From the NCBI GenBank assembly GCA_036768485.1, contig JAVLUZ010000709.1, positions 223,007 through 287,006 on the forward strand: DNA of 64,000 nt, in the 5' to 3' direction. Under the pieces are notes generated by a model that searched no databases, was not told the origin of the DNA, and was given only the letters and a program-made list of their open reading frames with translations. The first letter of the stretch is position 1. The number at the start of each line of letters is the position of its first letter. Shown here piece after piece: positions 14,201-35,529 of the stretch. The position numbers were made by a program, and so were the translations under genes. Source of the stretch: Mermis nigrescens. Lineage: Eukaryota > Nematoda > Enoplea > Mermithida > Mermithidae.

Positions 14201-14905
14201 TTGCGACAAAACGGTCCTTATGTTCAATTCCCTACTGAACAATGCGCAACATATTATAATTCAAATTATTGCACCGATAATAGCCTTAATTGCCCATATG
14301 TTATGTATGCTGCTGATCGCCAACCCACCATAACGTCGCCCCCACCACAGCCAACCCCTACATCTCCTAATGATGTAAACATGGTTACTGTGAAAGCGCA
14401 CAAAACAAGCCCATGTCCGAACTTATTTGCGTTGCGAGAGTTTCTCAAAGAATATGAGTGTTTGCAGTGCCATTTCACAATTTATGAAAAATTAAATTTG
14501 CCTTTGATTAAAACAATTGATCCTAATATTCCGATTGTAAATCACGCTGGGACAAATTTGCCTACTATTGTTGTTAATATTCAAGGCATCAATGTTCCGG
14601 CTCTAATTGATACGGGTTCGCAGGTCACCATGATGACCACATCAGCATTCTTACGCCTTGGTTTTAATTTACCGCCTGAACAAATTTCTCAGGTTGTTCA
14701 TGGCATAGGCGAAATCAGTGCTGTCGTTCAATATAAAGTCAAAATGACTATCACCATCACTGAGCATTCAATTCCCATGGTAGTATCTATTATAGATTAT
14801 TTGCCAGAAGATATCCTTTTAGGCTTTGATTTTTGTGAATTTGCTTCAATGTGGGTTAAGCCTAAAGTTGCCAATTTAGTCGCATTTTCTCTTCCGAAAA
14901 TGGTT
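14201..14905 (+). pseudogene. E1 retropepsin-like protease, fused to the end of RT
   Basis: An aspartic protease that would cleave Gag-Pol. In the open frame starting at 14201 the active-site motif is ALIDTGSQ (Asp137-Thr-Gly-Ser140), followed by ILLGFD at residues 205-210, the retropepsin C-terminal signature. After FCEFASMWVKP the frame passes directly to NLVAFSLP and then FLGLVQWF. In relatives the last words are the thumb end of reverse transcriptase. The whole finger/palm part with the catalytic Asp residues is absent, and the junction keeps the reading frame. This may be an internal deletion or a non-autonomous lineage. E2 does not settle it, because it is cut at the same region. Confidence 0.78.
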
Positions 14906-15868: not shown

Positions 15869-17570
15869 TCAACTATCGTTCATTGGCTAGTTATTTCTAA
15901 ATTATTGTGTCACTTCATTTTATCCAAATTTCATGATTCCATATTTGGAGCTCATTTTTCATTGCGCAAAATTTTGCCCGCCATACAAATGCGTTATTGG
16001 TGGCCGCGTATGGGGAATGATGTGATTGCTTGGTGTAAGAATTGTGATGTCTGCTTGCAACGCTAGGTTGCATTAAATTCTACATCTGTTCCTTTGCAAC
16101 CAATTGAAGTATCCGCACCTTTAGAACTTATTGCATGTGATTCTTTGCATATGCTGCGATCATCCCCTGGAAACGACCAAATTGTCGTGTTTATGGATTA
16201 TTTTACTAAATATGTTGAAGCTTTTGCTGTCTCCGACATTAAAGCAACAACTATTGCTAATCTTTTATTGCGAGAAATCGTTCCGCGTTATGGCGTGCCT
16301 AAACAATTTTTAACCAATCAGGGATCAAATTTTACATCCGCCTTGATATCTGAAGTTTGCAAATTGCTTAACGTTCAAAAAATTTTCATGACTCCGTATC
16401 TCTCCCGAAGTGACGGTTGACGGTCTCGTTGAACGTTATAATTGAACTTTAATTGATGTTTTGTCTAAATTGAGTGCGAGGAATGAGTATGACCACACAT
16501 GGGCGTGGGGGGTTTGGGCGGGTATGCACCCCCCAGAAGTTGAAATACCCCCCCCCCCAGAAATCAAAATAGCCCCCCCCCAGAAAATTTTTTTTGCTTT
16601 TTTAGCAATTTTTTGATGCCATTGGATAGTGCTCAATGAGAAACGTCGAAAAATGGTATTTTTTGCCATAAGACCACCTTTAAGACCATTTTTTGACCTT
16701 TAAAAATTTTTCACCCCCTCCAGAAATTTTTCCACCCCCAGAATTCTGGTGCTGCCCACCTATGAGTATGACTGGGAACAATATTTGCTATTTGCATTAA
16801 TTGTGTATCATGCAACTCCGCAAGCGTCGACAAATATTTCACCTTTCAAAATGCTGTATGGTCGTGAACCAGCTTTTCCTCTTGATATCTTACTTTTGAA
16901 TGATTTAACTATAAATCCGAAGTTACCACCTATTGCGGAAAAATATGTCATTGATTTAAAGCTTACGTTGCAAGATTTGCATGAAATCGCGTCTAAAAAT
17001 TCATCACAAGTGCGTAAACAGCAAAAATTGCAATATGATAAAGCCGTCACCAAAAATAATTTTGCTGTTTTGGACATCGTTTATCTTAATAATACATCGA
17101 TAATTCAACCCAATATTGGTAAACTATCACCTACACATGTAGGTCCGTATAGAATTGTTGCTCTGTCAATGCCGCAAACTGCACCTATTGTTTACGTCTA
17201 TCATCTGGTGATTTTGCATCTCGTTCATCAAAATACACTTTTGCCAGAGCCTAAATTACCATATTCTGATTTAATCGCCAAAAAACATGCTTATGTACTA
17301 GGTGATTTTGTTTTGGTAAAGTTACCGCATCGCCCATTGGCTCCAGCTGTAATTATATCTTTTTCGGATTTACCAGGCCGGGAAGGAAAATTATGGGACT
17401 GCGCGCCAATTTGTTTATTAAATGGCTCTAAAACTGCACAAGCTGTGCCATTATCTGATATTTTTCCTTTTGCAGACCCATGGCTGAGCAAGGTGCCTGC
17501 AGCAAAGAAGAACTCTTGGAGTCAGCTGGTCAGCAATTTTTGTTTCAAGGACGTGCCCCAGCCAACTTGA
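15869..17570 (+). pseudogene. E1 integrase with a long, possibly PWWP-like tail
   Basis: Integrase inserts the cDNA into the genome. The N-terminal zinc finger is visible as FHDSIFGAHFSLRK and WCKNCDVC. The catalytic core has ACDSLHM (first Asp) and FLTNQGSNF, where the second Asp of TDQGSN is Asn. The glutamate region is broken by a frameshift at about 16410 and by a hAT-like element at 16494-16764. After GREPAFPL and a GPYRIVAL SH3-like stretch the protein goes on for about 100 residues. This tail has GDFVLVKLPHRPLAPAVII, then LLNGSK and AVPLSDIFPFADPW. The spacing resembles a PWWP-type chromatin-reader fold (basic strand, aromatic cage region, 'FPF'). That is an inference from pattern only. 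The last 91 nt overlap the start of ORF3. Confidence 0.75.
16494..16764 (+). mobile_element. Small hAT-like MITE, copy 5 (in integrase)
   Basis: 271 bp, CACACATGGGC...GCCCACCTATG, with exact duplication AGTATGAC at 16486-16493 and 16765-16772. Removing it rejoins the integrase core (NEYDWEQ). Confidence 0.92.
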
Positions 17571-20500
17571 ACAAATTTTGAGCGGCAATGGATGGAGTAG
17601 CTGCTGCTAAGCAGTTGAGTCTCCCTAATCCATTGCCGCAGAACAATGCATCGTGCGTCAATGATTTTGCCGGACTTAGTGTTTGTTATATAATAAAATG
17701 ACATACACAAAGGCGCAACAACATAAAAAGCGCGTAAATAAACAAGATTGATGGTGGCGTGACACTTTCAATTAATCACCGTTATCAATGCTTTGTGTGC
17801 CCGTCAGCGCAGTCAGAGCTACGGGGCTCATCAGGAGCAGCAGGAATCATTTGTGGCGATGCTGGCACTATTACAGCCAGATAAATTAAGTTGTGGTTGT
17901 TTATTTTTGGGATACAATTCCAAATTCATTAACAATCAAAAATTTATGGCCTTCTCTGATTGGGAAGCCCAATTTAAACAATTTTAGCCGACTTATAAGC
18001 ATAAAAATGGACCTTTTGTCCGCTACATTCAGCTCACTAGCCCATTTGGCCATATTTTTTGCTGGGATATTTTGCGATTTCCAATGCCGCTGTTCCGATT
18101 GCACCAATTGCTAGCAACTTCCCTATGAGATGTAAGGCTAGTGTGCCAAAATCCAAACAATGATCAAATCGCTTATTTTCACGTTTATGGACCGACTTTC
18201 GAACAAATTTATGACATTCCCAATGCCCAATTGCACCAAAACGCCTATTCGCATAATCCGTTTTGTGCTACATTGTATAATACGTTGGCTAAGGCCCAGG
18301 AATTTATTTGACATCATGTGATTGAGGCAGAATCGCATCGCTTAAAGCAGTTGGCCGAATTTTGCTTTGATGTGTATGTCAATCCAAAGTAACCAAATTG
18401 TTACGGCCAGGCCTGGAGCCTCCCGCTTACTATTCCAATGGAGCACTATATGGCACTGGATCTGCTTATCACCATCTACGTTTTTATTTTGATGGAAGCT
18501 TATTCCGTCAACAATGAAATTACGCCAACTGAGGAATCACTGCCCTTATCATTCAAAGATGAGGAATTAACCATCAAACAGGCGCCAACAAATCAGCAGA
18601 ACAGGATTCCTTTATCGCATGTACTGACGCACAAACAGCAGCAGCTGGACAAGAAAAAGTCGGAACCATTGACAAGTACCGATTGTGGATATTTTGTCTG
18701 ATGAAGAAATTGTTACGTTCAAAGACATTTATCCAGCGTTTTCTGAGGCCTATGCCAGCCATTGCCACGGCTACTGTCATCATCACAACAACAATGACAA
18801 CTTTTTATGAATCCGTGTTGCTGAACCCGGTTCTCTTGTTGCTGAAGTACCAGATTTCTACCAGCTCTCTGCTGAGTTCAGCCATACCTTCAACAACAGA
18901 AATCGCAACCACCCCAACAGCAATGCCCTTGCCAGCCAGTATTCCGCCAAGTGCCACTTTGACATTAGCAATCACGCCATCACCAACCATTGCGCAATTG
19001 ACGCCGCTTATTTTGCAAGCTTTGTCAATTATTTCAGAAGCGTTACCAATTATATTGCACACCTTGCCAATTTTTGCGCAAACGCTACCAATTTCTTTAC
19101 AATCAATGGCAACTATGTTGCAAGCATTGCCAAGTTTTGTGCAAGTGTTGCCTATTGCTTTGCAGCCATCTAATTGGGACATAAATTGTCCAATTCCTGC
19201 GCACATGCTGACGTTACAATGATTATGGTGCCGCCACAACTGCAAGTGACTTTGCTGCCGCCAGTTGCGTCACAAGCAAGCGCCGCGATATTCTACCGCA
19301 TTGTCCGCTGCTGAATCGTTGCACACATTGGATGCAGATGCTGTTTTAGATGCATTGAGTATCCCGTATGTAGTGCCAAATTTAGCCCAAGTGCCGCTGT
19401 CCGTCATTGCCGCCACACATGGGCGTAGGAGGGGTTTTGGGGGGTATGCACCCCAGAAGTTGAAATTCCCCCAGAAATTGGAGTACCCCTCCAGAATTCA
19501 AATTTTGAAAATTTTTTTGCTTTTGTAGCAATTTTTTGATGCCATTGGATAGTGCTTAATGAGAAACGTCAAAAAATGGTGTTTTTTGCCATATGACCAC
19601 TTTTAAGACCATGTTTTGACCTTTAAAAATTTTTTTCACCCTGCCCCCCAGAATTTTGGTGCTGCCCACCTATGGTCGCCGCTGTAATCAAAAACTTAAA
19701 GAATCTGTTAACGGCTCATCAGCAGAACGCCGCCTGTTTCGCTGTGTATTTTTACCAATCAGTTGAATTGTTAGGCCGCAACGTACCAAAGTATTTATCT
19801 GTCGATAGCATGCAAAATTATTGCTCTTGGCTTGGCTCCGAACGTGGACTTTTGTTCTATAATGACATGTTGGACGTTGTTCAATGCAGCTACAACAAAC
19901 TGTATGCCTGCCATTTGCGCTATTCGCCCATTCCAATTCTGCCGCAATGCCCGTTGGTTTTGTCAGCTGTCGTGCCAGTCGCGATAGATGCTGACTGAAG
20001 ACCAACACCGCATTTTATTACGCAACCGAGCATATTCCAACATTTGTATTATCCGAACAATTGTTCATGAAATCGTTTTTTCATCATGACCAGAATTATG
20101 CTATACAAAGTTCCGTTTGAATTTTGGGTCAATCATCTGATGCTCAAAATGCTGCGCAAGATGTCATTAAATCCCGTGCATAACATTCCTAGTGAAATGT
20201 TGCCGCATTGCGTTCATCCTGCACCAGACCATATGGCGCCAATTTTGATCACAGTGCGCCAAATGTTTGACATTGTCAAAAATTTTTGGGAATTCCAAAA
20301 CGATTACAATAGGATTTTCCATCATATGCCAATATTTTTGTCGCCAGATGTTATGTGTGCAAAACTTTTGCTCAAATTTTTGGATCATCTATTCTATGAT
20401 TTTGCCGCCGTATACGAGTACAAAAACCTGATCATTGCCTGGCGTATGATCAAACAGTTGCAATGCATGATTTGTGTTGCATTTATTGGCCGATCTTACA

Positions 20501-21512
20501 CCAATTTTCCAGTTGAAGCCTTTCCGTAGTTTCCCAAATTGGCTGAGAATATTGACGACCCAGAAGAATCACACCACCAAATTTGAGCCATTTGTTTGGA
20601 GGCCAACCTGCATTTTGTCATGTCAGTCCAGATTGACCACTACTGCCAATGTCAAAAATTGACGTATTATTTGTGCACAAAGTGCAGGAATATTTAGCCC
20701 AAATTTGGAAGGAGCAACAGAAATTGCAAACCAAAACCAATACAACGACCCGCGAATGGCATGCCTCTTTGCAATATCCAAGATGGATCTACGGCAAAAG
20801 TACATAGGCATGCCGTCAATTTGGAAATTCCTGCCCAAATTAAGATTCAAAAAACAAGGATGGTTATTGAGCAGAAGGAACGAGGAGGAACTGCCCCCAA
20901 ATTACCGAGGCACTTGACCCTTACGTGTTGCCCCAGATTGCTAACCATTTTGTCTACCGCTTGCCACACTTCTGATGAAGAGCATAACTGTAAAATTAAT
21001 GAATTTTACATGGTGAAAACGTTGCATGCTCTCCATTGCTTGGAAAATTTGGAGAAGGAGCATCTAAAGCGACTTTGTCAACCCGAACCACAAATGGACA
21101 GCAATTAGGTGCTTACCACATTGACAAAGGGCAGCAAGAACCGCACCCGTTGAGGCAATTGCACTCACAATTGCACTCGCAGTCGCATTTGCATTCCAAA
21201 TTGCATTTGTATTCTATGACTAGCCACACTTTGCGCCCATGTCAGCATCAAGCATGAGTTTTTCACCCAATGTCACAGCCAAATCGCAATACCTTTGAGC
21301 AACATACCCAGTTGCGCCCAGCAAGACAACCATTGTTGCCAAAGCCATGTCCCACAACGCGTCCCAAGGAGCATCCATCTTTGTTGCCAATGCGTCGCTC
21401 ATATGGGTACTCCACTAATCAATACAAGTTACTGGCTCAGCCGTTACCTCGTTGTGCCAATGATTTGGACAATGACAATACGCTCGCCAATCCGCATTGT
21501 GACTTACGTTGA
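17480..21512 (+). pseudogene. E1 ORF3: large unrecognised protein downstream of pol
   Basis: It starts at ATG 17480 (MAEQGACSKEELLES) inside the pol end, in a different frame. Its partner in E2 starts MADKGASCKSTLLES at the equivalent place. The protein is broken by several stops and frameshifts and by the element at 19414-19674, but many blocks match E2. Examples are SFVAMLALLQP, KNGPFVRYI, GHIFC, LATSL, IAYFHVYGPTFEQI, MALDLLITIYVFILME, HPAPDHMAP and a C-terminal SYGYSTNQYK...PRC followed by acidic residues. The middle is rich in Pro, Ala, Thr and Leu, and a Gln/Ser/His/Leu-rich repeat lies at about 21140-21260. I see no signal peptide, protease, polymerase or classical envelope motif, and I do not recognise the family. 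It sits where some elements carry env, but does not look like one. Confidence 0.7.
19414..19674 (+). mobile_element. Small hAT-like MITE, copy 6 (in ORF3)
   Basis: 261 bp, CACACATGGGC...GCCCACCTATG. The flanking octamers are ATTGCCGC and GTCGCCGC, six of eight identical, suggesting an older insertion than the copies with perfect duplications. Confidence 0.85.
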
Positions 21513-21759
21513 TGTTTGCAACCGTGGATCACTTTGTCATCCAGGGATTGCTCTATGGTATGCCGCAAAACCGATTCCGACCACAAGTCCGAAGCCCTGC
21601 GCCATTACCCAGAGCATCACACTTGGTTTTACTCATCCAAACCCGCTTTTTGGATTGTTATTGAACTTAGAAGCTAGAAGCTAAAAACTCTGTGATTGTC
21701 GCCCCATCAGTCAGCAGCTGTTGTCACCAGATGTTGTTTTCCCAGTCTTTTATCGCATC

Positions 21760-22391
21760 ATGTTATTTTTCATGACTTAATTTTTGCATTGCCTTATCAT
21801 TGTATTTTTTCTTGATTTTGGTGCTATTTTTCTCATCAGTATTGCATAATCAGGTATTGTCTGATTTTGCCCGCATAATTACATTCCTTGTTTTATCTTT
21901 ACCTTGTTGTTTTATTTTTTTGTCTTTGCTCTTAATTTTTCTCTTGCCTATTGATCTTACGTGTCTTATAATCTTGTGTTTTAAAATTATTGCTTAAAAG
22001 CGGTATTGTTGTTAACATATCATAATTCTTTAACAGACAAGAGTTTAAAACCAACCTAAAAATTTTCATTTCAAAAATTTTACCTCCCGGGACTGAAGGA
22101 GTGGGTCAAAGATCCAAAGTGTACAAAAGTCCATTGCACGTGTATTGACCGTAATAAATCAAACAATCCTTCTATTCATTTGCTCCATGCATTATCTTGT
22201 TATTTGGCGCAAGTCTTGGAGAGCTTTTGAGCACAAACTTTAACATCAGCTCGCATTGTCCGTTTGATGAAAAAGTCTGGCCGCAAAGATCATCAATACA
22301 ATTACTCATGTTGAGGCGCAGTCAGCCGCCGTTTGTCTTGAAAAATTTGACACTACATCTCAAATTTTTTCCAAAACGTGGGAGAGTGTAA
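21760..22391 (+). pseudogene. E1 ORF4 relic: hydrophobic and C-terminal segment
   Basis: Matches ORF4 of E2 in order: ITFLVLSLP, then TCLIILCFKI, AVLLLTYHNSLTDK and, in another frame, SLGELLSTNFNISS. The last frame stops at TAA 22389-22391, just inside the 3' LTR. Hydrophobic stretches would make it a membrane protein if translated. Several frameshifts are present. Function unknown. Confidence 0.5.
22374..22386 (+). promoter_or_regulatory. Polypurine-type tract before E1 3' LTR
   Basis: The purine-rich run AAAACGTGGGAGAG immediately precedes TGTAAC of the 3' LTR, where plus-strand priming occurs in LTR elements. E2 has AAACGTGGGGTAG at the same place. Confidence 0.55.
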
Positions 22392-23455
22392 CTATGACAG
22401 TTACACAATATGATTTTCATACAAACAATTTACCATCAGTTCGCAAAAGCCAGCCGACAACATCATTATACTGTACCAAATTTACATAACTATTTGCGCA
22501 GCCATCCTTGCAACGTGTTAGTTCCAGGTTATGCCTTCAGTTCTCAATTAACCACCATTTTTCAATTCAAAATACAATTAGGTACTAGTCCGGTAGAGTA
22601 GAGTTACATATATGCTAACAGCAGTAATTTACCTATGTTACCGCTATAAGCTTTTAGAACTTTCGATTCGGTGAAAAGTTATTTTGATCATTGTTAAGTT
22701 GTTTTTGTTGACATTGCTTTACTGTAGTCATCCTAGTAAGATAGTTAGTCAGAGTTTTGACGTTTTTGGCGTTGTTGCGTTTTAGCTTTAGCATTATTGT
22801 TGCGTGCCGGCTTGCAGCCGTGCATTGTACATTTGTGTAATAAAATTGGAAAAAAACCACCCAGTGATAAGCCACATTGAGGGTTAGTCAGGCGACGTCG
22901 ACAATTATTTCATTTTGGGTTTTGACTGAGTGGAAAAGGGTAAATAATTTGTGGTCGTATCTTTTGCTTGTTTTGTGGAAATTCTCTTATCTTTTCTCAA
23001 CCCTTAAATAGCTAAAAATATATTTAATATTTTATGATGACTGACCGGTTGAGAGCTCGCTGTTGTTGTATTCGAAATTTAGAGTGCTACACAAATTAGG
23101 AACCAAAAACATTTTTGAATTACTCAGACCTCAGAAAAGAAGTTAAATTATCAACTTGACTTAGGTTTAGATAGGTCAACTGACCTTGCGAGCATTCCGG
23201 GATTCAGGTAGGTAAAAGTGTTAGGAATTAGGGCCTATCTGCTGAGAATCCCAATAGGTTGCAGTCAGCAATATTAGGACTATGGGAATCAAAGCCAGGT
23301 CTACAAGGGTCTACAAGGGTCATTGGGTTACAATTTGCCCTGCAATTCCACGAACCTGACCAGCGCTGAGAGCAGTTTAGGTACCTAAGTAAGTCCCAAA
23401 GGCAAATACACCTGTATCTGTGTTGAGTCAAACACAGTGCGGCTCTGTATTTACA
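22387..23455 (+). repeat. E1 3' LTR
   Basis: 1069 bp, TGTAAC...TTTACA, followed by the ATTG duplication at 23456-23459. Uninterrupted, so it shows the empty site for the element in the 5' LTR. AATAAA at 22839-22844. Confidence 0.92.
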
Positions 23456-23459
23456 ATTG

Positions 23460-25707
23460 GCACATAATAAATGATTAAAAGGAAAGCAAAAGGCAAAAAA
23501 TGCGTGCACAAATACGCTGGAAAATATATGACGACCTCTGCAGCCAAGCAGGAAAAAGGACACAGCACAGATGGACTGGCGAAAAAACCGAGTCTAAGAA
23601 GACTCTTAAAAATTGTAGGAACTGCCTTAATGTCAAAAACTGCGCTCGCACGCAGTTTCAAATGATACACAAAAAGAGACGTTGACAGACAAACAAAGAG
23701 AAATGAAATGGATCTACGAATATAACAATAGGCCTATGTGCAAAAGCTTATGGTAAAAGAATGTTTAAACGAGATAGGCACAAATATGAGACACACACAT
23801 ATGACTTTAAGTACATGTAAGATATGATAACACACGTACCGATTCGTACTCAAGTTGCATTAAGCCTGAGTGCCCATTTTCCTATCGCGGATTTTGATTG
23901 AAAATATGTGGGAAAGGAATGAAAATATGATAGTTTTCAGAGGAAAGTCTTCCCGTGCGACTCGCTTAAGCGTTGCGCTTAACGGTCGCATACATGTGTG
24001 CGTAAATTGAGCACATAAATGTACATCTGGGCAAATCAGTTGTAGGTATGTAGGTACATTGTAACCCAATACAAATGGAAATTTGTGTTTATCCATTATG
24101 GCAAAACGGCGTGTAGAGGGATCTCTACACTGTCCCGGGTGTCGAGAAAAATTTGCATGCAGTGTAAATTTTCACGCACAACAAAGTTTGTGCACCAATT
24201 TTTTGTGCAAAACAGCCATGGTGTGGAGCTGGGCGATTGTCAATTTGTGTTAACAGATCAGAGCGGGATGCTGACACATTTTTATGCACAAATGTATGTA
24301 TCAAAATGAATCAGATGACATATGGCTACATCAAACAATTGAGCAGCGGGAGAGAAAATTTGATGCGTCAATGATGCATTGGCAACGTAGTTTTGTGCAA
24401 CATATGGAATGACTGATTGCCCAAGACCCGGAGAATTTTGAATGAAAATAATTTATGATAGGAGGGCAGGTCACTTGGCTTAATTAGTATTGAGTACAAA
24501 AGAATCGAATTATGGACAAATTAAGCACACATATAGACAAGGACAATAAATGAAATAAAGACGGACAAATACAGTGAAATAACAAATATGTTTTTGGAAA
24601 AAGACGGAAAAGAATTCATAGTAATAAAAATATACATAGGAAAAATATGAACAATGGAGATAAGTAAAAAGAATCTTAGAAAATGTCCTAAAAGAGAGAG
24701 AAAATTTCTTGGATGCAAAAGATAACTAGTAAGTACAACAGGAAAAAATTTATGCAAAAATTAAATAAATATTATGACAAAAATTTAACAAACTGCTGGC
24801 GATTGATGACGCTGATCCTGGCACAGCAAAAATCAAACAAATAGAGAAAAAGTTCAAGTGCGACAATGTGGTTGATTGCAAGAAGTAGACAAGTGACCGG
24901 TGTGACAACTGTCAGTCGTATGCAAAGTAGATGGCAAAACGCGTAATTTAGACCTAGTGCAACTGGTTCCTTGAGACGGAATAGACAAAAAACACAACGT
25001 AATGATATGATGCTGAGCAGGACAATGGTCCTGCAATTGTGTAACCAAAGCGCGCAGCACGGATACAGACATCAGGGCGGCGCGATGCGGCACAGTGGTA
25101 TTGCGGCAACGATGAGAGTCTAAACGTGATGCTCATGGAATATTATGGCCAAAGCAGATGGCGGAGCAGTCAATTGTGAAGCCAAACACTTGGCTGCGGC
25201 GGCGCAGCGTGACTGGCAATTATGTTTAACGCGTTTGTAATGACATTGACGAGAACTATAATGTCCGGCAAGCTGCAAAGAATTGTGCGGCTGACGAACG
25301 GTGGAGGTAATGGCAAAATCGGTGGTATGCAAATCTGAAATGAATGAGGCGCTTCCTCAGTAGAACGCAAAGACCTAAGTTTGTGTCGCTATTGTTCCAT
25401 GTGACGACAACGCAAAGCAATTTGATTTTCTGTCAGTAAATCAACAGCGCATTGACACGTTTTCAAAGGCAGCTCACAAGAGGTCAATGTTGGCTCTCTA
25501 TGGAGAAGGGTTGAATCTTGAGCTGGAGTTGCGGATGCGTCGCGGTTGCTTTGTCAATTGCAAATTTCGTCTAATGCGGCTGGGGGGTCACGTCTAGGAA
25601 ACCTTGGATTTGTTGACACACCGAATAGCATGGAAAACGATTGGGCAAGTCATTGGCGGATTGGTACGCAAACAAAATAATTGAATTCGTTTATGCGCAG
25701 TATACAA
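23460..25707. other. Host-side DNA right of E1, with faint coding-like traces
   Basis: Continuation of the sequence interrupted by E1. Frames at 23461-23690 (with CRNCLNVKNCARTQF) and 24085-24310 (with HCPGCREKFACSVNFHAQ, then GVELGDCQFVLTDQSG after a shift) look mildly protein-like and contain Cys pairs. They are short and broken, and I cannot name a family. The stretch 24440-25700 has no convincing gene. Confidence 0.35.
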
Positions 25708-26048
25708 ATTAGTGTTGTAAAAGATGTCTTTATCTTTATCTTTTTAGCAAGATAAAGATAAAGATAAAGATTTCTTTATCTTTATCTTGATGATTTCTTT
25801 ATTTTATCTTTATCTTTATCTTTATCTTTTATAAAAATCACAGGCCATCTTTATCTTCATCTTTATCTTTTTGATAGGATTTTATATTGCTAAAAAAGAT
25901 AAAGTATGTACTTAAGATAGCAAGTAATCCAAAATGCAGGTTTGATGTGAAATACATTTAGACGCATTGAAGTTTCACTGTAACGCAAGAAAAGAAAAGA
26001 AAACGATTGTTTAAACCCTACGGCGTGCGGCCCAAACTAATGTCTGTA
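25708..26048. repeat. AAAGAT-rich repeat, right copy of the inverted pair
   Basis: Reverse complement of 8590-8857, with the same order of ATCTTT runs, 'caggccatctttat', 'tccaaaatgcaggttt' and 'cgattgtttaaaccctac'. It is slightly longer because of extra sequence near 25890-25925. Confidence 0.8.
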
Positions 26049-26289
26049 TCTCAACCTAAGTAAACGGGAGTGATACCGATCTAAGCGGGATTACTACTAC
26101 TAGCACCCACGTTAATCTATAGTCTGTTTCATTTATCCGAGAGCTTTGTCAGTGAATGTTTTTGGTGGCTACAGTCATTTCTTCTTTCTTATGTACTGTA
26201 GGTCGCTAGATCTTACTATAGCTACGGAGCATGGAAGGGTTTTTCAATAGCATTTTTGCGGCATAATTTAGGGTGTGGGTAAAATCCGG
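26049..26289. repeat. Inserted piece carrying one end of the TATAGTCTG family
   Basis: Absent from the left inverted copy. It contains 'ctatagtctgtttcattta' near 26118 and a body, 'gtaggtcgctagatcttac', that matches the right end of the element at 57665-58817 in reverse. The opposite end is not visible. Confidence 0.6.
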
Positions 26290-26868
26290 AAAGGGAAACG
26301 GAAATGATGGGTAAAATCCGGAAACGGAAACAGTGGGCAAAGCTGGAAACCAAAACGGAAACGATGGGTAAAAGCCAGAAACTGAAACGATCCAAACCGC
26401 CAGAACCGGGGTTCCCCAAGTAGGGCACTTCAGGGTGAACCCCATAGGTGGGCAGCACCGAAATTCTGGGGGGGTGAAAAAATTTCTGGGGGCGGGGCTG
26501 ACAAAATTTTCAAAGGTCATAAAATGGTCTTAAAAGTGGTCGTATTGCGAAAAAACACCATTTTTCGAAGTTTCTCATCGAGCACTATCAAATGGCATCA
26601 AAAAATCGCTAAAAAGCAAAAAAATTCAAAAATTGAATTCTGGGGGGTAGGTATTTTGATTTCTGGGATGGGGTATTCCAACTTCTGGGGGTGCATACCC
26701 TCCAACCCCCCACGCACATGTGTGGTCAACATCCCCAACCCCTTTTCTGGCAAAGTTTGTCTCACTGAAGGGGGTTTAGGGGCTCGGAAAGGGGGCCCTT
26801 GATTCATATGTGTAGCTGACCCTGGTTTTGTCGGGGGTTTCTGCGCCCTGGGGGTAGTCCAAAGCATA
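26290..26868. repeat. Inverted satellite piece with a short GGAAACGG tandem
   Basis: At 26275-26390 a unit like 'gggtaaaatccggaaacgg' is repeated about four times with a ~30-bp period. The ~179-bp satellite follows (26395-26442), is interrupted by a hAT-like element (26443-26724) and resumes to about 26868. The orientation is opposite to 7700-8480. Confidence 0.75.
26443..26724 (-). mobile_element. Small hAT-like MITE, copy 7 (in satellite)
   Basis: 282 bp in reverse orientation, CATAGGTGGGC...GCACATGTGTG. The flanking octamers GTGAACCC and GTCAACAT agree at only five of eight bases. The family is clear from the body, but the duplication is weak. Confidence 0.8.
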
Positions 26869-27783
26869 GACATAGCCATGGGGGCATTGGGGCACATGCC
26901 CCCTCCCGAAATTTTTCAGAAATATTGTTGATTTTTCTGTTGCAATAATTTGTGCCCAGAAAACGGAATTTAAAAAGGCAAAAACGTCAAAATTTTTCCG
27001 GCGCTTCGCGCGGAGTCATTATTATTTATTGTTATATAGATCCAATGAATTTAAAAGCTTGAATCAGCTAAAATAATCCAGCACTTCACATCACTTTAGT
27101 AATTTAATGCACTATTTAATCGTTGAATGAAACTGTGCATACTATCTTGAGCATAATAGTAAAAGTGCGAAAATTATTGTGTACCAGTTTGTCCATTCTC
27201 TGCTTTGTTTGTCTTTTGTGTACCACTTTGTCTATTCTTTGCATTGTTGTCTTTCTTTACAAGGTGACATAATCCTATTTTAAATGGAAGGAATGGCCAA
27301 ATTTTCTTATGTTTTTGCGCATTTCCTATTTTCTGAACTGCATCTTGTTGATAAGAAGGCCACAAATGGACCTGAAAACGGTAAGAACAAAATGTTCATT
27401 GATACATTTTTCTTTATCTTATTGGCAGCGACACGTTGCTGCGCTATGTAATTAGCAGAGGTCGAAAAACGCATTTCAGCCCAGAAGTTTTGTGCAATGT
27501 ACAAGTTCATCAATTTCAGGTATTTTTGGGCTTGCTTGATTCAGAACCGAGATTTGGCCGACTTTGCAAAAATTTTAACGTTTCTATTTAACATTAAGAT
27601 GCTTTTGTTACAAAATTTTCCGGGACTCTGCCCCGGACCCCGCTGGAAACGCTACACTACTAAAGGTCAAAAACTCAGGTTTATTATACATAGCGTTACT
27701 GGTATTCAAGGCAAAAGTAGTCTTAAAAAATTTTTGTTTATGTTTCCCCCCCCCGAACCAAAATCCTGGCTACGCCTCTGCAA
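26869..27783. mobile_element. hAT-like relic with CAGAGGCGTAGCCAGG-type end
   Basis: The right end 'atcctggctacgcctctg' and the left end 'catagacatagccatggggg' form imperfect inverted termini of a common hAT type. No matching duplication was found, so the ends may come from two insertions. One GGCGCTTCGCGCGG motif lies at 27000. No transposase seen. Confidence 0.45.
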
Positions 27784-29120
27784 GTTTTCTTGTGTTTTTT
27801 GCATTGTTTGTTTACTGAACTGTATGGCAAATATTTTTGCCGGCAAATTGCCGGGAAAAATTAAAAATTTTCCGGAAATGTAGTGCAAAAATAGCAAAAA
27901 TGTTAAATCGGTTTTTCACGGGACAAAAGTTCTTCGGGAAAAGTTGCCGATATAATTCCAGCTAAGGGCAAAGTTCCGGGGTTAAGGGGATAAATTTTCA
28001 CTAATAAGTCTTTCTGTATGTTATTGATGGCGACCTGTTGCTAAGGTACCTAAATATGTAAGTACTTAACTGAGTTTAAAAATCGCGTTTCAGCTAAAAA
28101 TGCATTCCAGGATTCAGCGGTCACCTAAGAAGTCTTGTGCATATTTGATCAATTTCAGTGTTTTTCGGTCTTAAATAAAAACCGAGATTTGACCAATTTC
28201 GTGTACATTTTCTTTTTTTACAAAATTTTCCATGGCTCCGCCTGAAGCTCGCTTTGAGTGCGCAATCCGAAATGCTCTCAAAGTCGCAAAATCTCCTTGC
28301 ACATGTTTACAGATTTTGGCTAAAAAGGTAGGTAAATAGGAATTACTATAAATTTTCGATTGTCTGTTTAAATAATTTTACAGCTGTATTAATTGAACCT
28401 ACAGAGCAAACAAGTCAAAATTTTTCGGCGCAAGCGCCAGTGACCGTCATACGTGTTCTTGGGGGGGGGGTGGTTGTCGACCCCCCGTAGAATCACTGCT
28501 GAATCCCGCAGAATGGTCACTGCCCCCTCCCCCTGCAGAATTGCCGATTTCTTAAAAAATCTTGAAAAGTTTGCTTTTTTACGCATTTTTAGCTCATTTT
28601 TGGCTCAAAGGTAATAAATTTTCGCCGTTTCGCGCCATATGCACATTTTTTGCATATATGTACTTCGTTCAATTTTTTCGATTTTTTCAGAAATTTTTTG
28701 GAATTTTTTAAATTTCTATGCTCTAGAAAGAACAACCACTGCTCTAAACGTCTAAAAATAGCGTTTTGGATGTGTATCTGACGTTTTTAAGCCCAAAAAA
28801 AGCCATTTTTTGAAAAATTTCCAGGGCCTGACCCCCTCTCCCCCAGATTTCGCATGCTGTACACGTATGGTGACCGTTATTTCGTATTTTGAATCTGCAG
28901 TATGTTTAAAAGCCTGAATCAATCACTATATTCATATGCTGCTAAATAACTTGGAGATTTGCAGTTTTTTTGTCAGACGACTACAAAGTGTTTAGGACGG
29001 TACTGAATGATTTATCACTTATGAGACCGTAAATTATATGGAATTATACAATAAAATGGTTAAACTTCAAAAATTTTTGGCACTTCGCGCCGCTTTACAT
29101 TTTTTATTTTTATTTTTTAT
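27784..29120. other. Old repeat sequence with a nested MITE
   Basis: No gene. Shares short words with 26990-27170 ('ttgaatca', 'aattt...ttcgcgcc') and carries variants of the GGCGC motif near 28427, 28622 and 29081. A clean insertion at 28448-28869 is listed separately. Confidence 0.4.
28448..28869. mobile_element. 422-bp hAT-like MITE, second family
   Basis: Ends CATACGTGTTCTTGGG and GCTGTACACGTATG, with a perfect 8-bp duplication GTGACCGT at 28440-28447 and 28870-28877. No coding capacity. A related copy is at 53514-53909. Confidence 0.88.
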
Positions 29121-29462
29121 TTATCCTATCTTGAACGCCTAAAGCTTCTTAACCTGCCTTCTTTAGAACTTCGTCGTCATCACATATGTCTATGTCTCAT
29201 GTATCAAATTATTAATGGTTTATCTTGTATTGATGCTTATGAATTTTTCATTTTTAGTCAAGGCACTACCAGATCAGTTAACAGTCGTAAACTTACGTTA
29301 CCAGTTGTCCGTTCCAATGCTCACCACAACGATTTTTTGCAAAGATACCGAAAAATCTGGAACTCCATACATAATCAAATAGTCTCTTCACCCAAAATCC
29401 GTTTGTTCAAAAAAGAGCTCCTTAACATTGATTTTACAAATTTATTGTTGGGACATACCTAG
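29121..29462 (+). pseudogene. LINE (non-LTR) reverse transcriptase C-terminal fragment
   Basis: A continuous frame from 29121 reads LSYLERLKLLNLPSLELRR and, a few residues on, CLMYQIINGL. This resembles the region C-terminal to the RT palm in CR1/Jockey-like LINEs (an 'ERL..L.L.SLE.RR...Y.I.NG' pattern). It ends at TAG 29462 after SPKIRLFKKELLN. The rest of RT and the endonuclease are absent, as in the common 5'-truncated LINE copies. No poly(A) tail was clearly seen. The nearby motif GGCACTTCGCGCCG at 29081 belongs to the neighbouring repeat. Confidence 0.72.
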
Positions 29463-29686
29463 TTACATCACTTCCGTGATCTTTGTATGTCCTTTTGTTC
29501 AGTCACTATTTTATCACGTATTTGCGTTTTAATAATTTTCGTGTATTTTTCTGACAATAAACACTTTCTTGTCTATCTTGTCTCTTGTCATTGTCAAAAA
29601 CCCTCACATTTGCATGAATACTCTATAAACGTCGAAAAACTCAGTTTTACTATGCATAACAGGTTACAGTGCTATATCAAAGCATT
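29463..29686. other. Spacer between LINE fragment and E2
   Basis: Short AT-rich stretch with no gene seen. The last bases before the LTR (near 29683-29687) would hold E2's target duplication, but its other side is lost. Confidence 0.5.
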
Positions 29687-30740
29687 CGTAAATGTAGCTG
29701 CCCGCACTGTACCTACTGAATCAGCAAAGATACGGACAAGGCTGACATTTGCCTTCAGGATTTACTTACGTAAGTACCTAGCTGCTCTTAGCGCTGGTTC
29801 CGATTGCATAGTTGCTCACAACATCGATCTTCTGAACCCTTGTAGACCTACGGCTTTGACTCCCTCAGTCCTAATATTGCTGACTGCTTCTTGTCGGGAG
29901 TCTCAGCAGCTACGCCCTTGATCCTATAAGTACCTATCTAAATCCCAGAATTGCCGCAAGGTCAGTTGACCTAACTCAACCCTGCTCAAGTTGATAAATT
30001 AACTTGTTTTCTGAGGTCCGGGTAAAACGGAAATGTTTTGTTTCCTAATTCGTATAGCACTTTGAAAATTGAAAACAACACCAACGAGCTCTAGACTGAT
30101 CAGCCATCAGAAACAATTAAATAATATTTTTAGCTAATTTTAGGGTTGAGAAAAGAATATTGAACTTTGAACGAAATAAATAACTAAAAACTATTTACCT
30201 ATCCTCTCCACCAAAAGCTCAGGAATCCTGAACGCTCGGGGCCAGCCTATCACATCCTTGGTATAATTCACCCCTGCGTGGATTTTATAATTTTATTCAA
30301 TAATGTACACACGGTGGGTGCCGGGAAGCAAAAACAATATCGCTAGATGATAAAATAAACCGAACAACTAATTCGTCGGAAAAGCAACTCCAATTAACAC
30401 CCCATCATGGGATCAATACAGTAAAACAAAAGTTTAAGTCAAATTAACATTATCCAAGATTACTCTCAAATCGACTCGTACAATAATACAATAAGCAGTA
30501 ACAAGTAAAACAATTACTATTACCATATACTTAATTCTATTTTACCGGACAAGTATCTAAAAGATTTTGTAATAAAAATTAAGGGATTTTTGTGAGAACT
30601 GAAGGCATAGCCACGAGCTCACTCTTCCGCAGATGTCAGCTCACAAATGGCTATGTTAACCGATACAGTACCAAGCTGTTGTCGGTAGGTCTGTGCGAAC
30701 TAATGGAACGAGTTCTCACCATATAACTCTCACAGATACA
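29687..30740 (-). repeat. E2 3' LTR
   Basis: About 1.05 kb on the minus strand, starting TGTATCTGTGAGAG at 30740 and ending GCTACATTTACG at 29687. Segment order matches the E1 LTR, including the polyadenylation signal (30292-30297 on the complementary strand) and the terminal block CAGTGCGG. The sequence is clearly diverged from E1, so E2 is a different lineage, not a recent duplicate. Confidence 0.85.
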
Positions 30741-31345
30741 CTACCCCACGTTTCGAAAAAAATTCGAAACACAGTAGCGAATTTTTTCGGGGGCTACTGA
30801 CGTCTGGATAAAAATAACAAAATAATAATAATATGAGCTGATGGTAACGTTTGCGCTCAGCAACTCTCTCAACGAAGCTAATTCTTGTTTCAGCTCATTA
30901 ACTTGCATGAAAAACTCTTCCTTTCTTTTTCCACAAAGTTCTTGCGCCCGAAGTAGTACCTTTTTGCACGAAAAACTTCGGCGCCTTTGCCTTCCTTCAG
31001 TCCCCGGGTAAGGAAAATTTTTGAATTGAAAAAGTTTTTGTAGATTGGGTGTGAGAACCCCTTGTCCGTTAAAGTATTAAGATACATTAATAGTAATACT
31101 GCTAATGAGCAAAAAATTTTAAGACACAAGATTATCAGGCAAGTAAAAGCCATTATGCATGAGGAAAAATTAAAGACATAAACAAAAATTAAAATATGAG
31201 GTAAATTTAAAACGAGGAATGTAACTATGCGATAATGACAAGAAAATAAGCACCAGAGAATCAAGAAATTACAATGATAATTAGACGCAAAAAAGGTCAA
31301 ACAAAAAACAAATAATATAATGCGAAAAAGTCCTGGAATCCACAT
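30741..31345 (-). pseudogene. E2 ORF4: hydrophobic then coiled-coil protein
   Basis: ATG at 31345 opens MWIPGLFRIILFVF and a series of hydrophobic segments, including TFLVLNLP and TCLIILCLKI, then LNTLTDKG. After a frameshift near 30930 it continues in another frame as EEFFMQVNELKQELASLREL, a heptad-like stretch. It ends FFRNVG at TAG 30741-30743, exactly against the LTR start at 30740. If made, it could be a multi-span membrane protein with a coiled-coil tail. The position fits an env gene, but I see no furin site, fusion peptide or signal peptide that would support that name. E1 holds the corresponding relic. Confidence 0.5.
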
Positions 31346-31591
31346 CAGGAAAAACGAAAAACGAAAAAGCTGCTGGTCGAGTCAACAGCTGTCGCAGAGT
31401 TTATAATTTCGAACTTCAAAGTTCGGTAGTGATCCCGATAATTAGATTTCGATCCGTGGGCTTTGCCGCAGCGACGCAGAAAAGATTCGCGGTCAGTCTG
31501 TTGCGACATGTATTTGAACGTTCCTTTCACAATATGGTGATGTGTTGCGACCATATAAATGTTGACGTAAACTACGATGCGGATCAACAGG

Positions 31592-34500
31592 TCAATCGTC
31601 ATCCTCGTCATCGTCATTGTCATCATCCGCGTAACAACGCGGTGTTAGCGGAACTGTCATCTGATATGGTTCTGGAGTGAATCCATAAGACTGTTCGCGA
31701 AGCATGTCGCGGGAATGTTCCTTCAATTGTGAAATAGGCCACGGCGGTGGCAATAAAGGCTCACATCGAGGGGGTGGTTGCGGATAGACCTGACTGGGTT
31801 CAAAATTTGGATACGGTGTTGAATAAAATGATTGATCCTGCTGTTGACGCAGGCGAGATTGTTGACGATCCTGATGAGTTTCGTGGTTTGGTTGTGATTG
31901 TTGTCAATACTCGCGTGGCTGCTGCTGTCGCAAGCGCAACATATGTCCAGCATGTGCCTGCAAGTACAATTCGGAACACGAATGCATCACTGAATACTGT
32001 TTTGGCCGCGTTGGAGCCTGCGTACGTGCTTGTGTTTGCAATTGCAGTTTTATTTGCAGTTTTTCTTGCATTTGTGCCTGTGGTTTTGTTTGTGATTGTG
32101 ATTGCGACTGCAATTGGGATTGCGATTGCCTGGACAAATGCGGAGCTTGCCGCGTAGCCCCCCTGTGGCTCGCACTTGCTTGCTATTGCGTGCAAACTTT
32201 GGCTCAAACTAGCCGTTTCACATGTTCTTTTTCTAAATTTTTTAAACGATGCAAAGTGTGTTGCGATTTTGAGTCATAAAATTTGTTTAATCAACAATAA
32301 TGTTGATTGTCGGACATTTCACAAATGCCTGATGCGATAATGAGCGAGCCAGCACAACACAGACGCGTCACGTGTTGCGGTACTTTGGGAGCAAGTGTTT
32401 TCCTTTTGCGCTATTCAATGACCATGTGCGCTCGTCGCATTGTGACTTGAGCTGGTATAGACGAATCAACATCTTGCCTTTCTTTGTTCGCCGTGGACCT
32501 GCACGGGTCTTGCAAAGAGGCTTGACATCTGTCTCTGCAAATTTTTCCTAAATCCGCTTGCAATTTGTGTTTGAGGTAGTATACCTATTTTTGGCGACCT
32601 TTGTACCAATCAAATTGCACTGGGACAGCAAATTCTGGATCAGTTTAAACACAAACGGCTCAAATTGTGCAATGCTATTCGGCCTGGTCTTCAATTCGCT
32701 CAGTCAGTTCCAGGAATTTTGGAAAAGTGTCAACTGGCGCCGGCGTGTATGATGGGCCGAGAAAAGCCACACGCAACATACGACACAGTTGCTCAACCAT
32801 TTGCCAGGGTTGGCCGTACTAATCGTCTGTCCAAGAATTCCAAAAGCACTTTTGCTTGCATAACATCTATAGATGAAAATATCAGTAGGAACCGATAATT
32901 TAATTCATATTTGGCTTGGAATTTGCAAACGTTTTCGAAAATATCAATCATTTGTTGCATAGTGACCAATAATGGTGCCATATGATCCGGTGCTGGGCAC
33001 ACTAGGTGCGGCAATGCTTCAGGGAGAATGTTCCAAGCTTGGCCATCGGTCATAACACTCGGAGTTTTGAGGTACTGGTGACTAACCAAGTATTCTAGTG
33101 GAACTTCATAAAGCATCATTCCGGTGGTTAAGAAAAACCAATTTCTCACAAAATAGTCATCCGGATAATAAAGACGTTGAAACACGCTCATTTGCGTGAT
33201 GAAACACGGCGGTGGTCCGCGATCAGCCTCTATTGCGGGTTGTGCGACTGATACCCAGGCCAAGGGGCGCTGGGGTGAATCGGCTGTGGACGAACGTCGC
33301 AAATGGATTGCATAAACGTTGTTGAGGTGAACTTGAGCAGCCTCTAACAGTTCGTCATACATTGTTGATCCTTCTATGTCACCTAAGTAGGTACGCAGAT
33401 CATGCAAAACCTCAGGGACAATATAGCACGGAGGATCGCGAGCCAAAGTTTTGACTATTTGGAAAAAATGTGCCAAATAGGAAGAGCAATTGCGCTGTTG
33501 CGCATTTTGTTCAGCTGATGCATGTTGGCGAACAATTTCTACATGCAGAGGTGGTGTGTCATCCGCATTCAGTGGTATATTTTGGGTACCCAGTGGCTGA
33601 ACGCACACATTGATATCCGATATACCTGCCGTAGTGCCAACAGTAATTTGTGACGCAACTGGTGGCGCGCTTTGTGACGCAATTTGTGACGCAATTTGTG
33701 TTGATAACACAGCTTGCGACACCTCTTGAGGTGGCAGCGTAGGTTGTGTTCGAGTAGGTGAATCCAAAATTTTGGTCACTATGATATCCGGCCCTGCGTG
33801 TTGTTCTTCCCAATCCGATTGCGGCATCAGGAACAAACGCAGAGTATCCGTCAACGCATGCAACAGAGTTGCGAGCAATTGTTAAGCAATTGCTTGCGTT
33901 GCGAGAAGGGTCCCCCTGGAGCGGATAAAATACACCCACATTTGGAAGGCAATAAATTCGCTTGCATTGCAGTTTCAGATTCTGGCAATGCAATTACAAG
34001 GCCTGAGGGCAATAAATTTGCCTGCTCAGTGGTCACAGATGGTCCGATTCCGACCATCGGAGTTTTAAATTGTGGCTCAGCTTGCAAAATAGTCGTAGTG
34101 GCCGGTGTAGATGTTATGACAGCGGTCAGTTTGGGAGCAGTTGCTACGGGCAAGCCCAGCTGGAAGCTGGCATTGTCCTGCAACTTGCGCCCCGCTAAAT
34201 ACGGATTATAGCAAACCGTTTTGTGCAATGGTGTCTCAGCCGCCATGGTAAGCAATTTAGCCATGGCTATGGCCGCTTTGGGCTGTGGAGGCGGCATATA
34301 GAAGTCTAAAGGCGTTACAACTTCTCTGCCATCCGAATTTACTTCAGCCTCAGCCGCCAAGCTGGTCGACTGGCCTTGCAATGGCTTACAAGACAACAGA
34401 CATCGCACTTTCTTTTTAGTTTCGCCTTTTTTAACGAATTTTTTGTCATCTTTAAAATAAAACGGCAATGGTTTTTGATCATCCGTAATGCAATTGTTTT

Positions 34501-35529
34501 GCGAGCAGACTTCCATCAATATGAACACATTGATGGTAATCAACACATCCAACGCCATATAGATTTGCATGGCGGGTGGTAGCGTTAAGGTCCATGCCTG
34601 ACCCCAATTGTCAGGGTCATCTTCATCAATGAACATATCAAAGAAGAACTCTACCAAACGCTTCAGCTTATGCGAGAAAGCTTTGATATTTTGGCGGCAA
34701 ATGAACGTGTTCGAATTACTAAGTATGTTAATAAAGATCGCCAAAAAATGATATTTCCAGTGCATATTACGGCAAATTTTGGCATCAGGAATTGCCAAAA
34801 TTTCTTCAAACGTGGGTCCGAAGACGTGAAAATACGCAATTTTATCTTGCGTTGGGTCATGGCACACTAGCCGTATGTCCGTAAGAGACGTTGCTAGCAT
34901 TTGGTGCAACCCGAATGGTAGGCTTGGGAAAACAAGACACATCCTAGCAAAAAATATGGCCATATGCACTGGCCAGCATTATGTAATGGACAAATGGACC
35001 ATTTTTGTCCGGGTACGTGGGACAAAATTGCTTGTACCGGTCTTCCCAATCTGTGTAATTTAAATCTTTTCTGTCATTTACAAACTCAGAATCGTAGCCT
35101 AAGTATAATGTGCCATTTATTATGTTTGACGGCTGGAGCAAAGCCAGCATAGCCTCGTATGATTGTTGATCATTGGTGACCAACGCAGTTTGGAGTATGT
35201 TCAGCTTTGGCACAAAGCGTAGCCAGTGGATAACGTCCAAACTTGTCGGCCCACCAAAGTTCCTGATTATTTATGCATTTTTGATGGCACCTAGCCTCGT
35301 TCTTGTGTTTGTATTTTATTTCTTTTACGCTTAGTGCTTCTAATTCATTTATGTGCTGATCGTCATTTTGCGGCAATGGGTCTGGGAAGTCCAACCCCCG
35401 TTCGGTGGCCACTTCCACCATTGCCATGTGAAAGTCATCTAGGGTTGTTGGGTTGCGTCCTTTGAGTGTAAATTGGCGACTAGCTGACTCCAAGAGCGTC
35501 GATTTGCAAGAGGCACCTTTGTCAGCCAT
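31592..35529 (-). pseudogene. E2 ORF3: large unrecognised conserved protein
   Basis: About 3.94 kb, some 1,300 codons, starting at ATG 35529 and interrupted by a few frameshifts. Long open stretches remain: 35529-35170, 35240-34944, 34969-33851 and 33878-32793. The N-terminal region has LLQPSNIINGTLYLGYDSEF, NGPFVHYIM, then IAYFHVFGPTFEEI and ALDVLITINVFILME. The middle is low-complexity and rich in Ala, Pro and Gln. The next block has FFLTTGMMLYEVPLEYLVS and CPAPDHMAPLLVTMQQM. The end has a Gln/Ser-rich repeat (32137-31904), SYGFTPEPYQ, PRC and an Asp tail, stopping at 31592. I cannot assign a domain. Confidence 0.72.

What the first reader, a model, noticed from the sequence alone, without database searches (positions are those of the whole stretch)
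17480..35529. Large extra gene (ORF3) conserved in two diverged gypsy-type elements
Downstream of pol, E1 (17480-21512) and E2 (31592-35529, minus) both carry a ~1,300-codon ORF3 whose N-terminal, middle and C-terminal blocks match in the same order. In HPAPDHMAP against CPAPDHMAP and the following residues, many codon differences are third-position synonymous changes. It has none of the motifs I know for env, protease, helicase or polymerase. This is the best candidate for an undescribed retroelement function.
Basis: partly seen in the sequence, partly recalled or inferred. Interest (0 to 1): 0.8.

Follow-up and report, generated by a model that had tools for sequence, protein, structure and literature searches.

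The report
Giant retrotransposon gene with exonuclease domain
Hundreds of jumping genes in this probably nematode genome carry a large extra gene whose front part looks like a DNA/RNA-trimming enzyme kept in shape by natural selection, while the rest of the protein matches nothing found in the searches made.

Summary
E1 (+) and E2 (-) are two broken copies of a gypsy-type LTR element; both carry a collinear ORF3 after integrase. Open ORF3s of up to 1,390 codons exist elsewhere in the genome.

'No known motif' fails for the first quarter: ORF3 begins with a DEDDy 3'-5' exonuclease domain. Direct Pfam scores stay below cut-off (best 17.0 of 23.6 bits). The link runs through other, apparently mobile ORFs of the same genome that pass the PF01612 cut-off and match ORF3 (BLASTP E 3e-11; profile-profile E 2e-14).

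In 11 of 11 copies chosen for open frames, D, E, D and Y-x3-D are invariant; the exonuclease is the most constrained part (pN/pS 0.077; ORF3 0.228). About 1,000 further residues include two constrained regions without a relative found.

A splice-acceptor-like site sits 4 nt before the ATG; this junction occurs 503 times genome-wide. Silent divergence suggests ORF3 is swapped between lineages.

DEDDy ORF3s are known from bdelloid rotifers (PMC5408684): a new variant of a known kind. Activity, substrate and function are inferred.

The parts
9329..10672 (+). E1 5' LTR (interrupted by a ~265-bp repeat at 10181-10446)
   Evidence: 89% (853 columns) and 86% (235 columns) identical to 22386-23460; TGTAAC...TTTACA ends
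11255..13495 (+). E1 gag region, broken
   Evidence: Retrotrans_gag only E 0.021, under cut-off, at 13016-13495
14123..15052 (+). E1 aspartic protease; RT palm missing downstream
   Evidence: Asp_protease_2 E 9.9e-10; protease is followed at once by RT thumb/RNase H sequence (deletion is inference)
15115..15483 (+). E1 RNase H piece
   Evidence: RT_RNaseH E 3.4e-30
16067..17567 (+). E1 integrase, interrupted by a repeat at 16490-16764; PWWP-like tail
   Evidence: rve E 1e-8; in genome copies PWWP E 0.011 (L105) and 0.2 (L109), below cut-off
17461..17476 (+). splice-acceptor-like site 4 nt before the ORF3 ATG, E1
   Evidence: 5 in window against 0.43 expected; 17 of 20 fetched copies; 503 in genome
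17480..21512 (+). E1 ORF3 (broken)
17763..18617 (+). E1 ORF3 exonuclease domain (motif I reads N-S-K; motif II D and motif III Y-x3-D kept)
19412..19677 (+). ~265-bp repeat inserted in E1 ORF3
19672..20526 (+). E1 ORF3 conserved region D2
20587..21200 (+). E1 ORF3 conserved region D3
22386..23460 (+). E1 3' LTR, preceded by purine tract GTGGGAGAG
10833..10871 (+). two GTAAGT donor-like sites in the E1 leader
   Evidence: use as donors is inference
35442..37834 (-). E2 RNase H and integrase; element 5'-truncated near 37866
   Evidence: rve E 2.2e-12, RT_RNaseH E 4.1e-34
35533..35548 (-). splice-acceptor-like site before the E2 ORF3 ATG
31592..35529 (-). E2 ORF3 (broken)
34391..35168 (-). E2 ORF3 exonuclease domain in two frames, all four acidic residues kept
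32720..33512 (-). E2 ORF3 conserved region D2
32084..32659 (-). E2 ORF3 conserved region D3
29683..30706 (-). E2 3' LTR (68% identical to the E1 3' LTR)

Best explanation
ORF3 is an accessory replication gene of a gypsy-type LTR retrotransposon clade. It encodes a ~1,390-residue protein: a short N-terminal region, a DEDDy 3'-5' exonuclease domain (about residues 115-345 in L109), a Pro/Ser/Thr-rich linker, two further conserved regions of unknown fold (D2, D3) and a variable tail. It is most likely translated from a spliced subgenomic mRNA, as retroviral env is: a donor in the LTR or leader joined to the acceptor 4 nt before the ORF3 ATG. The exonuclease most likely trims 3' ends of the element's own RNA or cDNA, with the C-terminal regions binding substrate or partner. 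ORF3 is exchanged as a cassette between element lineages. Shown by sequence: domain identity, conserved catalytic residues, selection, the conserved acceptor-ATG arrangement. Inferred: splicing, enzymatic activity, substrate, role, and exchange as the cause of the silent-site pattern. My odds: DEDDy identity about 0.95; splicing about 0.75; action on the element's own 3' ends about 0.45.
For: Domain: 41 PF01612 places in the own genome at E <= 0.01, each marked over cut-off; ORFs L125, L128, L133 and L132 score 30.9-40.4 bits against a cut-off of 23.6. ORF3 (L109) against L128: BLASTP E 3e-11, 53 of 216 identical. Profile-profile of 9 ORF3 copies against 5 such ORFs: probability 98.3, E 2.3e-14, score 98.2, against a best of 22.4 in 150 column shuffles; against 51 bacterial/phage DEDDy sequences: probability 43.6, E 2.4e-4. 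Residues D147, E149, D229, Y324, D328 (L109 numbering) identical in 11 of 11 open copies; pN/pS exo 0.077, D2 0.167, D3 0.194, N-terminus 0.308, linker 0.328, tail 0.624. Acceptor-like site plus ATG: both window copies; 17 of 20 fetched copies, with the pol stop 88 nt after the ATG in 15 of those 17; 503 matches to the 21-nt pattern in the genome, 0 for the reversed control. Exchange: in 9 copies (36 pairs) mean pS is 0.193 in the pol tail, 0.409 in exo, 0.382 in D2; L106/L107/L108 against L112/L115: pol 0.057-0.070, exo 0.234-0.247. The exo/pol distance ratio falls in groups: 0.6-1.8 in the 4 closest pairs, 1.4-1.9 in 8 pairs, 3.3-5.1 in 24 pairs.
Against: No direct ORF3 match passes the PF01612 cut-off (12.3-17.0 bits of 23.6); of three full-length open ORF3s only L105 showed PF01612 at all, L103 gave no family and L109 gave two unrelated weak ones. 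Single-sequence PDB searches found nothing; PDB profile searches gave no exonuclease. Both AlphaFold models are useless (mean pLDDT 39 and 33). With the first 14-sequence DEDDy set 57 of 300 shuffles reached the real score. The 11 copies were picked for long open frames and are related, so the pooled pN/pS leans towards constraint and its pairs are not independent. No transcript, protein or enzyme data. Lower silent divergence in pol could partly reflect constraint on pol.
Confidence: 0.55

Rival explanations
1. ORF3 is a silencing antagonist: its exonuclease attacks host small RNAs or their precursors, or competes with host DEDDy factors such as MUT-7 or EXD1, so that the element escapes small-RNA silencing.
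For: Host DEDDy relatives act in transposon silencing, as discussed in PMC5408684; strong constraint on the exonuclease; high copy number (503 junctions).
Against: No silencing or expression data; a role in the element's own life cycle explains the same facts.
Confidence: 0.25
2. ORF3 is a catalytically dead, RNA-binding exonuclease derivative (as PMC5408684 says of Maelstrom and EXD1), for example packaging element RNA.
For: E1 has lost both acidic residues of motif I.
Against: All four acids and the Tyr are identical in 11 of 11 open copies and kept in E2; E1 is a decayed copy.
Confidence: 0.1
3. ORF3 is an env-like gene for exit or entry.
For: Position after pol and the acceptor-like site are env-like.
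Against: No hydrophobic N-terminus and no hydrophobic segment except the motif III helix in three open ORF3s; domain identity.
Confidence: 0.03
4. ORF3 is a passenger with no function for the element.
For: [quoted passage not shown]
Against: pN/pS 0.228 over the whole ORF3 and 0.077 in the exonuclease among open copies; 0.447 between the two dead window copies.
Confidence: 0.02
5. No cassette exchange: pol is simply slower at silent sites because of extra constraint.
For: pS is lower in the pol tail than in exo in 33 of 36 pairs and than in D2 in 35 of 36.
Against: The exo/pol ratio is not constant: 0.6-1.8 in the 4 closest pairs, 1.4-1.9 in 8 pairs, 3.3-5.1 in 24 pairs. I lowered this rival from 0.3 to 0.2 after making that table.
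Confidence: 0.2

Closest known systems
DEDDy-type ORF3 of bdelloid rotifer LTR retrotransposons (Juno, Vesta) and Athena/Terminon elements, Rodriguez et al. 2017, PMC5408684
   Same: A DEDDy 3'-5' exonuclease as a third ORF after pol in an LTR element; the paper says such ORF3s are typically expressed from spliced messages and infers exchange between retroelements.
   Different: Other host (probably a mermithid nematode); DEDD here, whereas the paper reports DEED; ORF3 is ~1,390 residues with two more constrained regions; purifying selection shown here, not tested there for the DEDDy type. I could not compare sequences: none were available to me.
DEDDy exonuclease domain of Dada DNA transposons, PMC3706591
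   Same: A mobile element that acquired a DEDDy exonuclease, proposed there to process cleaved 3' ends.
   Different: DNA transposon; the domain lies inside the transposase.
Cellular DEDDy exonucleases (PF01612; RNase D; WRN and MUT-7 recalled)
   Same: Motifs DxE, D, Y-x3-D in order.
   Different: An insertion after motif I (about 30 residues, by eye on the alignment); part of a retrotransposon protein; direct score below the Pfam cut-off.
env of gypsy/errantiviruses
   Same: Position after pol; spliced transcript (PMC8096092, passages).
   Different: No fusion-protein features seen; enzyme domain instead.

Membership tests
DEDDy 3'-5' exonuclease superfamily | Motif I DxE | tested here: met
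   D147/E149 in 11 of 11 open copies; E2 yes, E1 no
DEDDy 3'-5' exonuclease superfamily | Motif II D and motif III Y-x3-D | tested here: met
   D229, Y324, D328 in 11 of 11; both window copies
DEDDy 3'-5' exonuclease superfamily | Homology to accepted members | tested here: met
   through L128/L125/L133/L132, which pass the PF01612 cut-off
DEDDy 3'-5' exonuclease superfamily | Direct Pfam score over the curated cut-off (a detection threshold, not a property of the family) | tested here: not met
   best 17.0 of 23.6 bits
DEDDy 3'-5' exonuclease superfamily | RNase H-like fold | tested here: inconclusive
   model of half the domain, pLDDT 39
DEDDy 3'-5' exonuclease superfamily | Metal-dependent 3'-5' activity | not testable with these tools
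   needs an assay
Ty3/gypsy-type LTR retrotransposon | LTRs, protease, RNase H then integrase | tested here: met
Ty3/gypsy-type LTR retrotransposon | RT palm with its catalytic motif; RT phylogeny | not tested
   no RT palm seen in either window copy; RT of genome copies was not fetched
Bdelloid DEDDy ORF3 type | DEDDy ORF downstream of pol in an LTR element | tested here: met
Bdelloid DEDDy ORF3 type | DEDD changed to DEED | tested here: not met
   DEDD here; DEED reported in PMC5408684
Bdelloid DEDDy ORF3 type | Common descent with the bdelloid ORFs | not testable with these tools
   no bdelloid sequences were available to me
LTR-element envelope proteins | Signal peptide and transmembrane anchor | tested here: not met
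   hydropathy only, three open ORF3s

The most novel reading that the evidence does not exclude
ORF3 is an exchangeable counter-silencing cassette: a retrotransposon-encoded, active exonuclease fused to a new nucleic-acid-handling module that removes or blocks host small RNAs, which would help explain how this clade reached at least 503 copies of its ORF3 start junction.
Probability: 0.2. Interest if true: 0.88.

Novelty: new variant of a known kind. Interest (0 to 1): 0.6.

Why it matters
[quoted passage not shown] Here a high-copy family in another host keeps the catalytic residues invariant in the open copies examined and the exonuclease is the most constrained part of ORF3, which argues that it is needed. 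Open ORF3s in the genome make activity and substrate directly testable. The remaining ~1,000 residues hold two constrained regions with no relative found in the databases searched.

Tried and rejected
Leads that failed. Homologue searches with the E2 pieces: none at E <= 1 among 2,266 and 3,135 candidates; viral contigs; phages. Single-sequence Pfam, NCBIfam, PHROGs and PDB searches: weak or no matches.

Own DEDDy profiles on the window pieces. With 14 sequences (best of three models, of 2,000 shuffles reaching the real score): E1b 8, E1d 19, E2C 20, E1c 121, E2N 133, E1a 292. Profile-profile with that set: 8-16 of 300, and the N piece aligned in the wrong register. With 51 sequences, of 3,000: E2C 1, E1b 98, E1d 240, E1c 287, E1a 2,361, E2N no score. 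E1 read in one frame with X at stops, of 3,000: 43 with residue shuffles and 202 with block shuffles against the 51-sequence model. In a whole-window control of 2,106 overlapping stretches, one just 3' of E2 ORF3 scored 7.6 bits against 5.2 for ORF3. Pooled domain profile: 0 of 300 and 2 of 900 with the 51-sequence set, 57 of 300 with the 14-sequence set. So the window alone did not prove the domain; the genome search did.

Withdrawn: I first read motif II as F-E and thought of the DEED variant; the alignment with the genome's other DEDDy ORFs puts it at PTQD.

Rejected: an ORF4 with membrane segments in the T-rich 3' region (no three-base periodicity); D2 or D3 as relatives of the C-terminal part of the other DEDDy ORFs.
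Full report
WHAT IS THERE. The window holds two dead copies of one kind of LTR retrotransposon. E1 (+) runs from 9329 to 23460 between LTRs 89% identical over 853 columns and 86% over 235. It has a gag-like region (weak), an aspartic protease (Pfam E 1e-9), RNase H (E 3e-30), integrase (E 1e-8) and ORF3; the RT palm is missing. Repeats of ~265 bp have been inserted in its LTR, gag region (two), integrase and ORF3. E2 (-) keeps RNase H, integrase, ORF3 and a 3' LTR and is cut off near 37866.

SELECTION. Between E1 and E2 pN/pS is 0.22 for pol and 0.447 for ORF3, with third-position bias in the pol and ORF3 blocks tested and none in the LTR or the 3' region. This is well below 1 although both copies are decayed.

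THE WHOLE GENOME. After many failed attempts the window's own assembly could be searched: 524 Mb in 860 contigs. 109 of 2,103 candidates were scored, giving 111 matches to the E2 piece; by my count of that table 29 of the 111 rows have open frames of at least 1,000 aa. A published assembly of the mermithid nematode Mermis nigrescens has 524 Mb in 867 scaffolds and 84% repeats (PMC10989877, abstract and passages). That the host is this species is an inference from assembly size and contig number alone. I fetched 20 ORF3 regions, chosen for long open frames plus several broken or divergent ones.

IDENTITY OF THE N-TERMINAL DOMAIN. Direct evidence was thin: Pfam PF01612 E 0.15 in E2, at best E 0.0053 in a genome copy, always under the cut-off; PDB searches were empty. 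The link came from searching the same genome for PF01612: 41 places, each over the cut-off. Several score identically on different contigs, as dispersed repeats would; L123 looks like an exon of an ordinary host gene, with further matching pieces nearby on the same contig. In 4 of the 12 fetched loci (L125, L126, L131, L132) an integrase match lies upstream within the ~1.5 kb held; in the other 8 none was found with the E1 integrase as query. The ORFs L125, L128, L133 and L132 pass the Pfam cut-off as proteins. ORF3 matches them: BLASTP of L109 against L128 E 3e-11; profile-profile of 9 ORF3 copies against 5 such ORFs E 2.3e-14, score 98.2, against a best of 22.4 in 150 column shuffles. The alignment places motif I at GYDSEF, motif II at PTQD and motif III at YLAMD (YMALD in E1 and E2). 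E2 keeps all four acids; E1 has lost the two of motif I. In 11 of 11 open copies all four acids and the Tyr are identical. I therefore call the domain a DEDDy exonuclease although its direct Pfam score fails.

THE REST. Regions D2 and D3 (about 691-985 and 986-1190 in L109) are constrained (pN/pS 0.167 and 0.194); the N-terminus (0.308) and linker (0.328) less so; the tail is nearly free (0.624). These are pooled over 55 pairs of related copies picked for open frames. No Pfam family reaches its cut-off (the nearest over D2 is DUF3408 at E 0.097), and they do not resemble the C-terminal part of the other DEDDy ORFs. A model of D2 was useless (pLDDT 33).

EXPRESSION. The ORF3 ATG lies inside the end of pol in another frame, 88 nt before the pol stop in 15 of the 17 fetched copies that have the exact junction; 3 of the 20 lack it. 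Just before it stand a pyrimidine tract and CAG: TTTTGCAG/ACCCATGG. A strict acceptor pattern occurs 5 times in the window against 0.43 expected, and two of the five are these. The 21-nt junction pattern (first five bases any pyrimidine) occurs 503 times in the genome and never in the reversed control. The E1 leader has two GTAAGT sites within 40 nt (about 25 are expected in the whole window, 29 found), and one lies in each E1 LTR with one at about the corresponding place of the E2 LTR (not aligned base by base). The bdelloid paper states that ORF3s of LTR elements are typically expressed from spliced messages (PMC5408684, passages). Splicing here is likely but unproven.

EXCHANGE. At fourfold sites E1 and E2 differ in 87 of 201 in pol and 67 of 108 in ORF3 (p 0.002); at twofold sites 51 of 266 and 47 of 132 (p 0.0005). 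Among 9 genome copies with an open pol tail (36 pairs) mean pS is 0.193 in the pol tail against 0.409 in exo and 0.382 in D2. The exo/pol distance ratio is uneven: 0.6-1.8 in the 4 closest pairs, 1.4-1.9 in 8 pairs and 3.3-5.1 in 24 pairs. Copies with nearly identical pol can carry clearly different ORF3s. I read this as replacement of ORF3 by recombination between element lineages; constraint on pol silent sites is the rival.

WHAT IS KNOWN. DEDDy ORF3s are described in bdelloid LTR elements and Athena elements (PMC5408684: abstract, passages, section 3.6 and the Discussion read), and a DEDDy domain in Dada DNA transposons (PMC3706591, passages). A review calls a DnaQ-like exonuclease a well-known accessory domain of LTR-element polyproteins, citing Rodriguez 2017 and two papers I did not see (PMC6338049, first of four parts); two others repeat the rotifer case (PMC6431247 and PMC5718144, passages). 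My searches showed no other LTR element with such an ORF3 among the rows listed (7 to 15 per search, of up to 1,531 papers); subscription journals are mostly outside that library. Hence: new variant of a known kind. What is new is the host group, the giant architecture, and purifying selection shown for the nuclease.

FUNCTION. The bdelloid authors suggest 3'-end processing of element RNAs and mention a silencing role as an alternative. I prefer action on the element's own 3' ends (about 0.45) over counter-silencing (about 0.25). Invariant catalytic residues argue against a dead RNA-binding version, and the lack of membrane features by hydropathy against env.

Noticed in passing
L131:192-1046; window 16764-17567 and E2 equivalent: The integrase tail of an LTR element in this genome carries a PWWP domain (Pfam E 2.4e-8, over cut-off); the E1/E2 family shows it weakly at the same place (L105 E 0.011, L109 E 0.2). 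A built-in chromatin reader on an integrase; a paper search for PWWP, LTR retrotransposon and integrase listed 3 papers, none of which by title or abstract start concerns an element-encoded PWWP (listing only).
   Followed up: partly
L125, L126, L128, L130, L133, L134 and L131, L132: At least two further kinds of apparently mobile DEDDy ORFs in the same genome (about 490-500 aa and about 300 aa), in dispersed copies, some downstream of integrase.
   Followed up: partly
4297-4558, 10181-10446, 12098-12365, 12793-13064, 16490-16764, 19412-19677, 26442-26730, 39655-39891, 39903-40150: A short (~265 bp) G-run-rich repeat in nine places, five inside E1; in the integrase it is flanked by the direct repeat ATGAGTATGAC.
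   Followed up: partly
7685-8502: Tandem array, 4.6 copies of a 181-bp unit.
   Followed up: no
4475-5536 and 6150-6530, minus strand: A 354-aa open frame with no Pfam family over cut-off and a neighbouring C2H2 zinc-finger-like frame just under cut-off.
   Followed up: partly
37866-42064 and 48567-50423: A repeat in inverted copies (81-93% identical) that begins within a few bases of where E2 is truncated; an insert of about 2.3 kb with ~100-bp inverted ends sits in one copy.
   Followed up: no
21740-22100 and 31370-30993: T-rich region after ORF3 conserved at about 75% between E1 and E2 with no codon periodicity; perhaps a 3' RNA signal.
   Followed up: partly
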